Assembly (NCBI GenBank): GCA_012031415.1
Contig: JAAUTN010000013.1
Location: forward strand, 1 to 46,974
Direction of reading: 5' to 3'
Source of the DNA: Leptolyngbyaceae cyanobacterium SM1_4_3
Lineage (GTDB): Bacteria; Cyanobacteriota; Cyanobacteriia; Elainellales; Elainellaceae
DNA length: 46,974 bases
The number at the start of each line of letters is the position of its first letter. Position 1 is the stretch's first letter. Positions 1-18,690 of the stretch are shown here, piece by piece. The position numbers and the translations under genes are program-made. Below the pieces are notes generated by a model. That model made no database searches, had not been told where the DNA came from, and was given only the letters and a program-made list of their open reading frames with translations.

Positions 1-109
1 GCATAGCCATTGTGCGTATGGCGACAAAAGAATGGGTGATGAAGCGGGCGTGGAGAAGTTCCAGGTCGGCAAATTGGGGCGATCGCCAGAATTTAACTTG
101 TTCTTTCAT
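1..109 (-). CDS. AraC-family regulator, N-terminus (partial, apparent frameshift)
   Basis: Only the first part is in the window. It starts at the ATG whose complement is 107-109 and begins MKEQVKFWRSPQFADLELL, followed by ITHSF. This matches the N-terminal cupin (ligand-binding) domain of AraC-type transcriptional regulators, where ITHSF is normally followed by xRHxHxGYA. The expected residues CRHTHNGYA are encoded one base out of phase after the A run at 26-29, so one base seems to be missing there. Either the gene is broken or the base was lost in sequencing. The rest of the gene, with the DNA-binding helices, lies outside the window. Confidence 0.55.
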   Translation of the reverse strand, partial: MKEQVKFWRSPQFADLELLHARFITHSFVAIRTMAM

Positions 110-181
110 GGGGTGAGGAAAGGTTGTGAGTGAAGATTAGGGATCAAGGATAGCGAGAGAATCTTAAAAGTGTTTGAATAA

Positions 182-379
182 CTGAGATCTTGCACCAGTA
201 GCAGGAGTCATTGCACTGGAGCCTTGAGATCAATCTCAGGCTCAAAGCTAAAACTCGTTAAAACGAGTTGGAATGGTCTTTTGGTGGGCATTTGAGTCCG
301 TTTCAACGGACTTCAGCGACTAGCCCGGAATTGATTCCAGGGCGGGTCATCGGGCAACAGACTTGGTGCAAGATCTGAG
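182..379. repeat. 198-bp element with 16-bp terminal inverted repeats
   Basis: The left end reads CTGAGATCTTGCACCA (182-197) and the right end TGGTGCAAGATCTGAG (364-379), inverted matches at 15 of 16 positions. ATAA flanks both sides (178-181 and 380-383), as expected of a 4-bp target duplication. The inside has no coding potential. A truncated relative of the right half, in the opposite orientation, lies at 21876-21965. This is a MITE-like non-autonomous element; no matching transposase is in the window. Confidence 0.6.
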
Positions 380-431
380 ATAACACCCCCCCCACAGACT
401 CCTGGGTTACAACTAGACTTCTCAAACGTCT

Positions 432-704
432 TCAAAGACTGGTCGGAGAATCTCAAAGACTGGTCGGAGAATCTCAAAGACTGGTCGGAGAATCTCAAAG
501 ACTAATCGGAGAATCTCAAAAACTAATCGGAGAGTCTCAAAGACTAATCGGAGAATCTCAAAAACTAAGGATTGCGGATTTATTAATGTGTAATTCTCTT
601 GTGTAAGGGCATGGCATTGCCATGCCCTTACAGAGATTCTGGTTTTACAGGTTACTTGATCCACAATCCTAATCGGAGAATCTCAAAGACTAGTCGAAGA
701 ATTA
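432..704. repeat. 21-bp tandem array, interrupted by a MITE
   Basis: Six full units start at 432, 453, 474, 495, 516 and 537, followed by a partial one at 558. The unit is TCAAAGACTGGTCGGAGAAT plus C; later copies carry AATCGG instead of GGTCGG. The array resumes at 672 (ATCGGAGAATCTCAAAGACT) after a 102-bp insertion and fades out near 704. Because 21 is a multiple of three, the array gives spurious open frames of repeated heptads on both strands. There are no unique spacers, so this is not a CRISPR. Confidence 0.85.
568..669. mobile_element. MITE, AGGATTG family, inserted in the tandem array
   Basis: A 102-bp sequence bounded by TA on both sides (566-567 and 670-671). Its ends are inverted: AGGATTGCGGAT on the left and ATCCACAATCCT (658-669, one end base shared with the TA) on the right. 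It holds a strong hairpin at 603-631 (GTAAGGGCATGGCA, one base, then its complement). Removing it with one TA restores the flanking 21-bp unit. Related copies are at 11775-11853 and, degenerate, 18594-18680. The TA target resembles IS630/Tc1/mariner transposition. Confidence 0.7.
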
Positions 705-11660: not shown

Positions 11661-11774
11661 AGCACATTTGATGTTTCTCTATGACACTAAAGAAAACTAT
11701 AGGCAAACTAATTAATCAAGCCGTCACACTAAAGGTTTGTCTGCCTCAATTCAAGCCTGTGAGCGATCGCACTA

Positions 11775-11853
11775 AGGATTGCAGATTAAATAACCTGTGG
11801 GATGGGCAAGATGCCCATCCCACAAAAGGTACAGTTTATTTAATTTTCAATCC
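11775..11853. mobile_element. MITE, AGGATTG family, copy 2
   Basis: A 79-bp element flanked by TA (11773-11774 and 11854-11855). Its ends AGGATTGCAGATTAAATAA and TTATTTAATTTTCAATCC are inverted with a few mismatches. The core holds TGGGATGGGCA and TGCCCATCCCA as a hairpin. The end sequences match the element at 568-669. Confidence 0.65.
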
Positions 11854-12048
11854 TAAAGGTTCACGCAGGCAATTCAAAGAATTGACCCGAAACGACAAAG
11901 AGTTGCGAGTCAACAGGAATGGCGATCGCCGACTTTACGTTCTATTTGCGTAAGTCCTTGCGTAAATCCTGAAGATGCTAAATAGACAAAACCCAATGCC
12001 CGCTATTAGACATTGGGTTCCGCGATTGCGCTATTCAGCTTGCGATAC

Positions 12049-18593: not shown

Positions 18594-18680
18594 GTTAAGA
18601 CATGAACAACGTGGGATGGGCATCCTGCCCGTCTGGTCGGGTGAGACACCCACCCCACAGGTTATTTAATCCACAATCCT
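18594..18680. mobile_element. Degenerate AGGATTG-family MITE
   Basis: The right end GGTTATTTAATCCACAATCC matches the other copies and is followed by TA. The core keeps GTGGGATGGGCATCCTGCCC, and the left end is decayed. It lies between the convergent dihydroorotase-like and psaK genes, 11 bases from the psaK stop. Confidence 0.5.
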
Positions 18681-18690
18681 TAGCCAATCC

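What the first reader, a model, noticed from the sequence alone, without database searches (positions are those of the whole stretch)
432..704. MITE inserted in a tandem array with an exact TA duplication
The flanking array unit is TCAAAAAC-TA-ATCGGAGAATC. The element 568-669 splits it at TA, with TA on both sides. Because neighbouring units give the original sequence, the insertion site and target duplication can be read directly from one genome.
Basis: seen in the sequence. Interest (0 to 1): 0.6.

Follow-up and report, generated by a model that had tools for sequence, protein, structure and literature searches.

The report
Mini-transposon inside a tandem repeat array
A 101-base non-coding mini-transposon jumped into a 21-base repeat array between genes of a cyanobacterium; it duplicated three bases (TAA, not two as first read) and belongs to a family of dozens of copies that carry the ends of an ISAzo13-type transposon, so it is a clean but ordinary case of a known kind.

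Summary
Eight 21-bp units (432-703) are interrupted once; removing 104 bp restores unit 7 exactly as TCAAAAACTAATCGGAGAATC.

Two details of the reading are wrong. The element is 101 bp (569-669, GGATTG...CAATCC), and the target duplication is 3 bp, TAA (566-568 and 670-672), not TA. Of 108 related elements from this genome and relatives, 81 have a direct repeat of exactly 3 bp, 80 of them TAA or TTA, with preferred context C-TWA-G; chance gives 0.14% for TWA. Three insertions of this genome have the uninterrupted site, with one TWA, in a congeneric genome.

The partner is not IS630. Complete 1.3-kb IS elements in relatives carry the same ends and TWA duplications and encode an ISAzo13-family transposase. 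Fragments of the same IS lie at contig breaks of this genome.

Verdict: a high-copy ISAzo13-derived MITE family in Leptolyngbyaceae, a new member of a known kind. One mildly unusual trait: similar ends around interchangeable hairpin cores, one of which also occurs in an unrelated repeat frame.

The parts
432..703 (.). Tandem array of eight 21-bp units, unit 7 split by the insertion (558-568 and 673-682 plus one TAA); unit 8 (683-703) diverged
566..568 (+). Left copy of the 3-bp target duplication, TAA
569..669 (+). 101-bp MITE, GGATTG...CAATCC
569..596 (+). Left end of the MITE, 22/28 identical to IS ends of the ISAzo13-type elements
642..669 (-). Right end of the MITE (read on the minus strand), 23/28 identical to the left end of the G007 IS
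602..632 (.). Perfect hairpin core TGTAAGGGCATGGCA-T-TGCCATGCCCTTACA, also found outside this family
670..672 (+). Right copy of the 3-bp target duplication, TAA
11776..11853 (+). Second family member in the window, 78 bp, different hairpin core (GTGGGATGGGCAAGATGCCCATCCCAC), TAA on both sides (11773-11775, 11854-11856)
   Evidence: (L176)
18611..18679 (+). Third family member, right end and core present, left end decayed; left boundary approximate; TTA follows at 18680-18682

Best explanation
Window 569-669 is a non-autonomous miniature transposon. Its ends are recognised in trans by an ISAzo13-family DDE transposase, which inserts it by a staggered cut at TWA (preferably C-TWA-G), so that gap repair leaves a 3-bp duplication. 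Here it landed in the TAA of one unit of an existing 21-bp array, and it has not been copied by later array growth. Shown: the insertion, the exactly restored unit, the 3-bp rule across the family, empty sites for three sister copies, and complete ISAzo13 elements with the same ends and the same duplication. Inferred: that this transposase moved this copy, the geometry of the cut, and that the MITE arose from the two IS ends by loss or replacement of the interior.
For: Unit restored exactly. 81 of 108 elements with exact 3-bp repeats, 80 of them TWA, against 0.14% by chance. Empty sites with a single TTA, TAA and TTA in G021 for copies L156, L063 and L155. Complete IS of 1299-1312 bp in G007, G025 and G015 with the same ends and TAA/TTA on both sides. 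Transposase halves match PF07592 (3e-24, 1.1e-76) and NF033519 (1.1e-50, 3.4e-84). Same-IS left ends (C408, C472) and right ends (C609, C481) in this genome. ISAzo13 elements are reported to make 3-bp duplications (PMC10045372).
Against: No intact copy of the IS is assembled in this genome; the two N-terminal fragments share an in-frame stop, so the source of active transposase today is unknown. No empty version of this very array was found. Identity between MITE and IS is limited to roughly the outer 28 bp, so another transposase with similar end recognition cannot be excluded.
Confidence: 0.9

Rival explanations
1. An IS630/Tc1-mariner-type MITE that duplicates TA.
For: TA is contained in every TAA and TTA; IS630 and ISAzo13 transposases are distantly related (weak IS630 model scores).
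Against: Repeats are exactly 3 bp in 81 of 108 elements; IS630 model scores (26 and 20 bits) are far below the cut-off of 100, ISAzo13 scores are 173 and 283; the same-ended complete elements are ISAzo13.
Confidence: 0.04
2. An IS5/IS1031-type (PIF/Harbinger-like) MITE, since that group also duplicates three bases of the form TNA (own knowledge).
For: 3-bp TWA duplications fit.
Against: No IS5-type element with these ends was seen; ISAzo13 elements with these ends were. IS5-type transposases were not searched for directly.
Confidence: 0.03
3. The mobile unit is the REP-like hairpin core, and the flanking ends are passengers.
For: The core occurs in another repeat frame and alone; GTAG-tagged hairpins are a known REP superfamily also found in cyanobacteria (PMC3733652).
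Against: The duplications abut the ISAzo13-like ends, not the core; elements with quite different cores share ends and duplication; empty sites lack the whole element.
Confidence: 0.02
4. Not an insertion: the 104 bp arose with the array or by an assembly error.
For: The genome is a draft of 700 contigs with many repeats, and no relative has the array.
Against: The element is flanked by an exact unit in register and has dozens of dispersed relatives with the same boundaries.
Confidence: 0.01

Closest known systems
ISAzo13 family insertion sequences (DDE transposase PF07592 / NF033519; related to eukaryotic Zator)
   Same: Ends, TWA 3-bp duplication; complete elements with these ends in G007, G025 and G015
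   Different: The window element is 101 bp, codes for nothing and has a hairpin core instead of the transposase gene
Bacterial MITEs in general, including cyanobacterial ones such as Nezha (named in PMC10969869)
   Same: Short, inverted terminal repeats, target duplication, high copy number, intergenic
   Different: Partner is ISAzo13-type; cores are interchangeable; Nezha's sequence was not compared here
REP / GTAG-tagged palindromic repeats (PMC3733652)
   Same: The core is a short GTA...TAC hairpin dispersed in intergenic DNA
   Different: Here the core is enclosed in transposon ends; association with a RAYT gene was not tested

Membership tests
MITE (general) | Short element without transposase gene | tested here: met
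   101 bp; lengths 63-146 bp in the family, mostly 94-102
MITE (general) | Terminal inverted repeats | tested here: met
   GGATTG/CAATCC and imperfect pairing further in
MITE (general) | Target site duplication at many independent copies | tested here: met
   81 of 108
MITE (general) | Presence/absence polymorphism (past mobility) | tested here: met
   Three empty sites in G021; not testable for the window copy itself
ISAzo13-derived MITE | Ends shared with a complete ISAzo13 element | tested here: met
   22/28 and 23/28 identities; 0 mismatches of the G007 IS ends to the family end pattern
ISAzo13-derived MITE | 3-bp duplication as in the IS | tested here: met
   reported for the family in PMC10045372
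ISAzo13-derived MITE | Transposase of the IS moves the MITE | not testable with these tools
   needs an assay
IS630-type MITE | TA 2-bp duplication | tested here: not met
   2-bp repeats in 2 of 108, 3-bp in 81 of 108
IS630-type MITE | Same-ended element with IS630 transposase | tested here: not met
   same-ended elements found encode ISAzo13 transposases
REP / GTAG repeat | Hairpin with unpaired GTAG tag and RAYT transposase | not tested
   only the resemblance of the core was noted

The most novel reading that the evidence does not exclude
The family is a modular vehicle: one pair of ISAzo13-type ends encloses several unrelated hairpin cores, and one core is shared with a different inverted-repeat frame, so hairpin modules appear to be exchanged between transposon families, by capture, conversion or repeated insertion.
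Probability: 0.35. Interest if true: 0.5.

Novelty: new member of a known kind. Interest (0 to 1): 0.3.

Why it matters
It gives a well-supported target rule (C-TWA-G, 3-bp duplication) for an ISAzo13-type system, with an exact pre-insertion sequence readable inside one genome. It also shows how a one-locus reading of a target duplication can be a base short and point to the wrong transposase family. If the exchange of hairpin cores is confirmed, the family is a natural series for asking whether the interior of a MITE matters for its spread.

Tried and rejected
A genome-contig scan with two array units found nothing; a plasmid search of 200-900, Rfam and viral contigs with the end pattern also found nothing. 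An orthologous empty array was sought: G022 lacks array and insert altogether and the G021 contig ends there. L054, an IS110-like C terminus (recognised from memory) near a family end, was considered as partner and dropped because the ISAzo13 copies have both ends and the duplication. More distant ISAzo13 transposases of this genome (C642, C362) lack these ends. The first end-pairing lists contain chance pairs; pairs over 150 bp and overlapping pairs were removed for the counts.

Full report
OBSERVATION. A 21-bp tandem array starts at 432, in the intergenic region on the 3' side of a dehydrogenase-like ORF on the minus strand (906-1790). Units at 432, 453, 474, 495, 516 and 537 read TCAAAGACTGGTCGGAGAATC or close variants. 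Unit 7 begins at 558 (TCAAAAACTAA), breaks after 568 and goes on at 673 (TCGGAGAATC); unit 8 is 683-703. Joining the two parts of unit 7 with one TAA gives TCAAAAACTAATCGGAGAATC, a perfect unit. So 104 bp are extra: a 101-bp element plus one 3-bp copy of the target.

WHICH DUPLICATION. At one locus TA (element 568-669) and TAA (element 569-669) describe the same DNA; the family decides. Searches of the own genome gave further full and partial copies, and the 17-bp end pattern has 135 hits against 9 for the reversed control. Of 108 distinct elements, 81 have a direct repeat touching GGAT...ATCC of exactly 3 bp, 3 of 1 bp and 2 of 2 bp. The 81 are 48 TAA, 32 TTA and 1 ATA. Random position pairs give 1.9% equal 3-mers and 0.14% equal TWA. 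The preferred site is C-TWA-G (49 of 81). Caveat: the end patterns included TWA on one side, so TWA itself was partly selected for on that side; the equal repeat on the other side was not.

EMPTY SITES. Joined flanks of nine copies of this genome were searched in G021 and G022. For L156, L063 and L155, G021 has uninterrupted DNA across the junction with a single TTA, TAA and TTA. The L055 copy is present in G021 too. Insertions are thus both shared and polymorphic within the genus. For the window copy no empty array is available: in G022, window 13-117 and 912-1300 are about 33 bp apart, and the G021 contig ends near the equivalent of 861.

PARTNER. A contig-end fragment (L061, C408) has the same end beside the start of a transposase frame that matches PF07592 and NF033519. 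A family-wide search found complete elements. In G007 a 1299-bp IS has GGATCGTGGATTAAATAA at both ends and TAA on both sides; G025 (1299 bp, TTA) and G015 (1312 bp, TAA) are similar. The transposase lies in two frames of about 200 and 230 aa that meet at an A-rich stretch, which suggests programmed frameshifting (inference). Both halves match the ISAzo13 models strongly and IS630 only weakly. The window MITE is 22/28 (left) and 23/28 (right) identical to the G007 left end; of the 173 GGAT starts in the window, other than the element itself, one reaches 20/28 (presumably another copy of the family) and the rest at most 16/28. This genome also has IS right ends (C609, C481). The two N-terminal fragments share an in-frame stop, so an active transposase in this genome is not shown.

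ANATOMY. The window copy folds as a long imperfect hairpin (DNA, z -7.3) around a perfect hairpin at 602-632. Other copies carry quite different cores between similar ends: a GATGGGCA/GTGAGAC type, a GGAAGTGCCGCGC type, a GTGCGTTA type and rarer ones. The core of the window copy also occurs in a repeat with ends like GGCRTTGCTGA...TCAGCAACRCC (L010, L013, L017) and outside any recognised frame. This suggests exchange or capture of hairpin modules; no mechanism was tested.

LITERATURE. ISAzo13 and eukaryotic Zator are reported to make 3-bp duplications (PMC10045372). A search for ISAzo13 together with MITE gave one paper, which describes no such element. The library holds open-licence papers only, so this absence is weak evidence; Elhai et al. 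2008, on very small mobile repeats in cyanobacteria, is not held.

VERDICT. A real insertion of a known kind of element, well spotted from sequence alone, with the duplication length, element boundary and transposase family corrected.

Noticed in passing
window 179-382: A second dispersed repeat of about 200 bp with inverted ends (CTGAGATCTTGCACCA / TGGTGCAAGATCTGAG), present in dozens of copies in this genome and G021, ends checked in six copies; probably another MITE family, partner unknown.
   Followed up: partly
L059 (G000:C306) 8-314: A related 21-bp array in this genome also contains a family-type left end (131-147) with a different core and no recognisable right end, so array and element meet at least twice.
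   Followed up: partly
L010, L013, L017 (G000:C484, C370, C376): The same GTAGGGGCATGGC hairpin core sits inside a different repeat with ends like GGCRTTGCTGA...TCAGCAACRCC.
   Followed up: partly
L003 (G000:C291) 1609-1638: A 30-bp element made of almost nothing but the two family ends (GGATTGTGGATTAAATAGAATCCACAATCC) lies directly beside a 101-bp copy; also seen next to a copy in G021 (L115).
   Followed up: no
L056 (G000:C268) around 1416-1514: A copy inserted at what reads as a TAA stop codon, so that the 3-bp duplication restores the stop.
   Followed up: no
window 422-664, minus strand: The array is open on the minus strand as a 7-residue repeat (LVFEILR), as expected of a 21-bp unit; nothing here shows that it is translated.
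   Followed up: no
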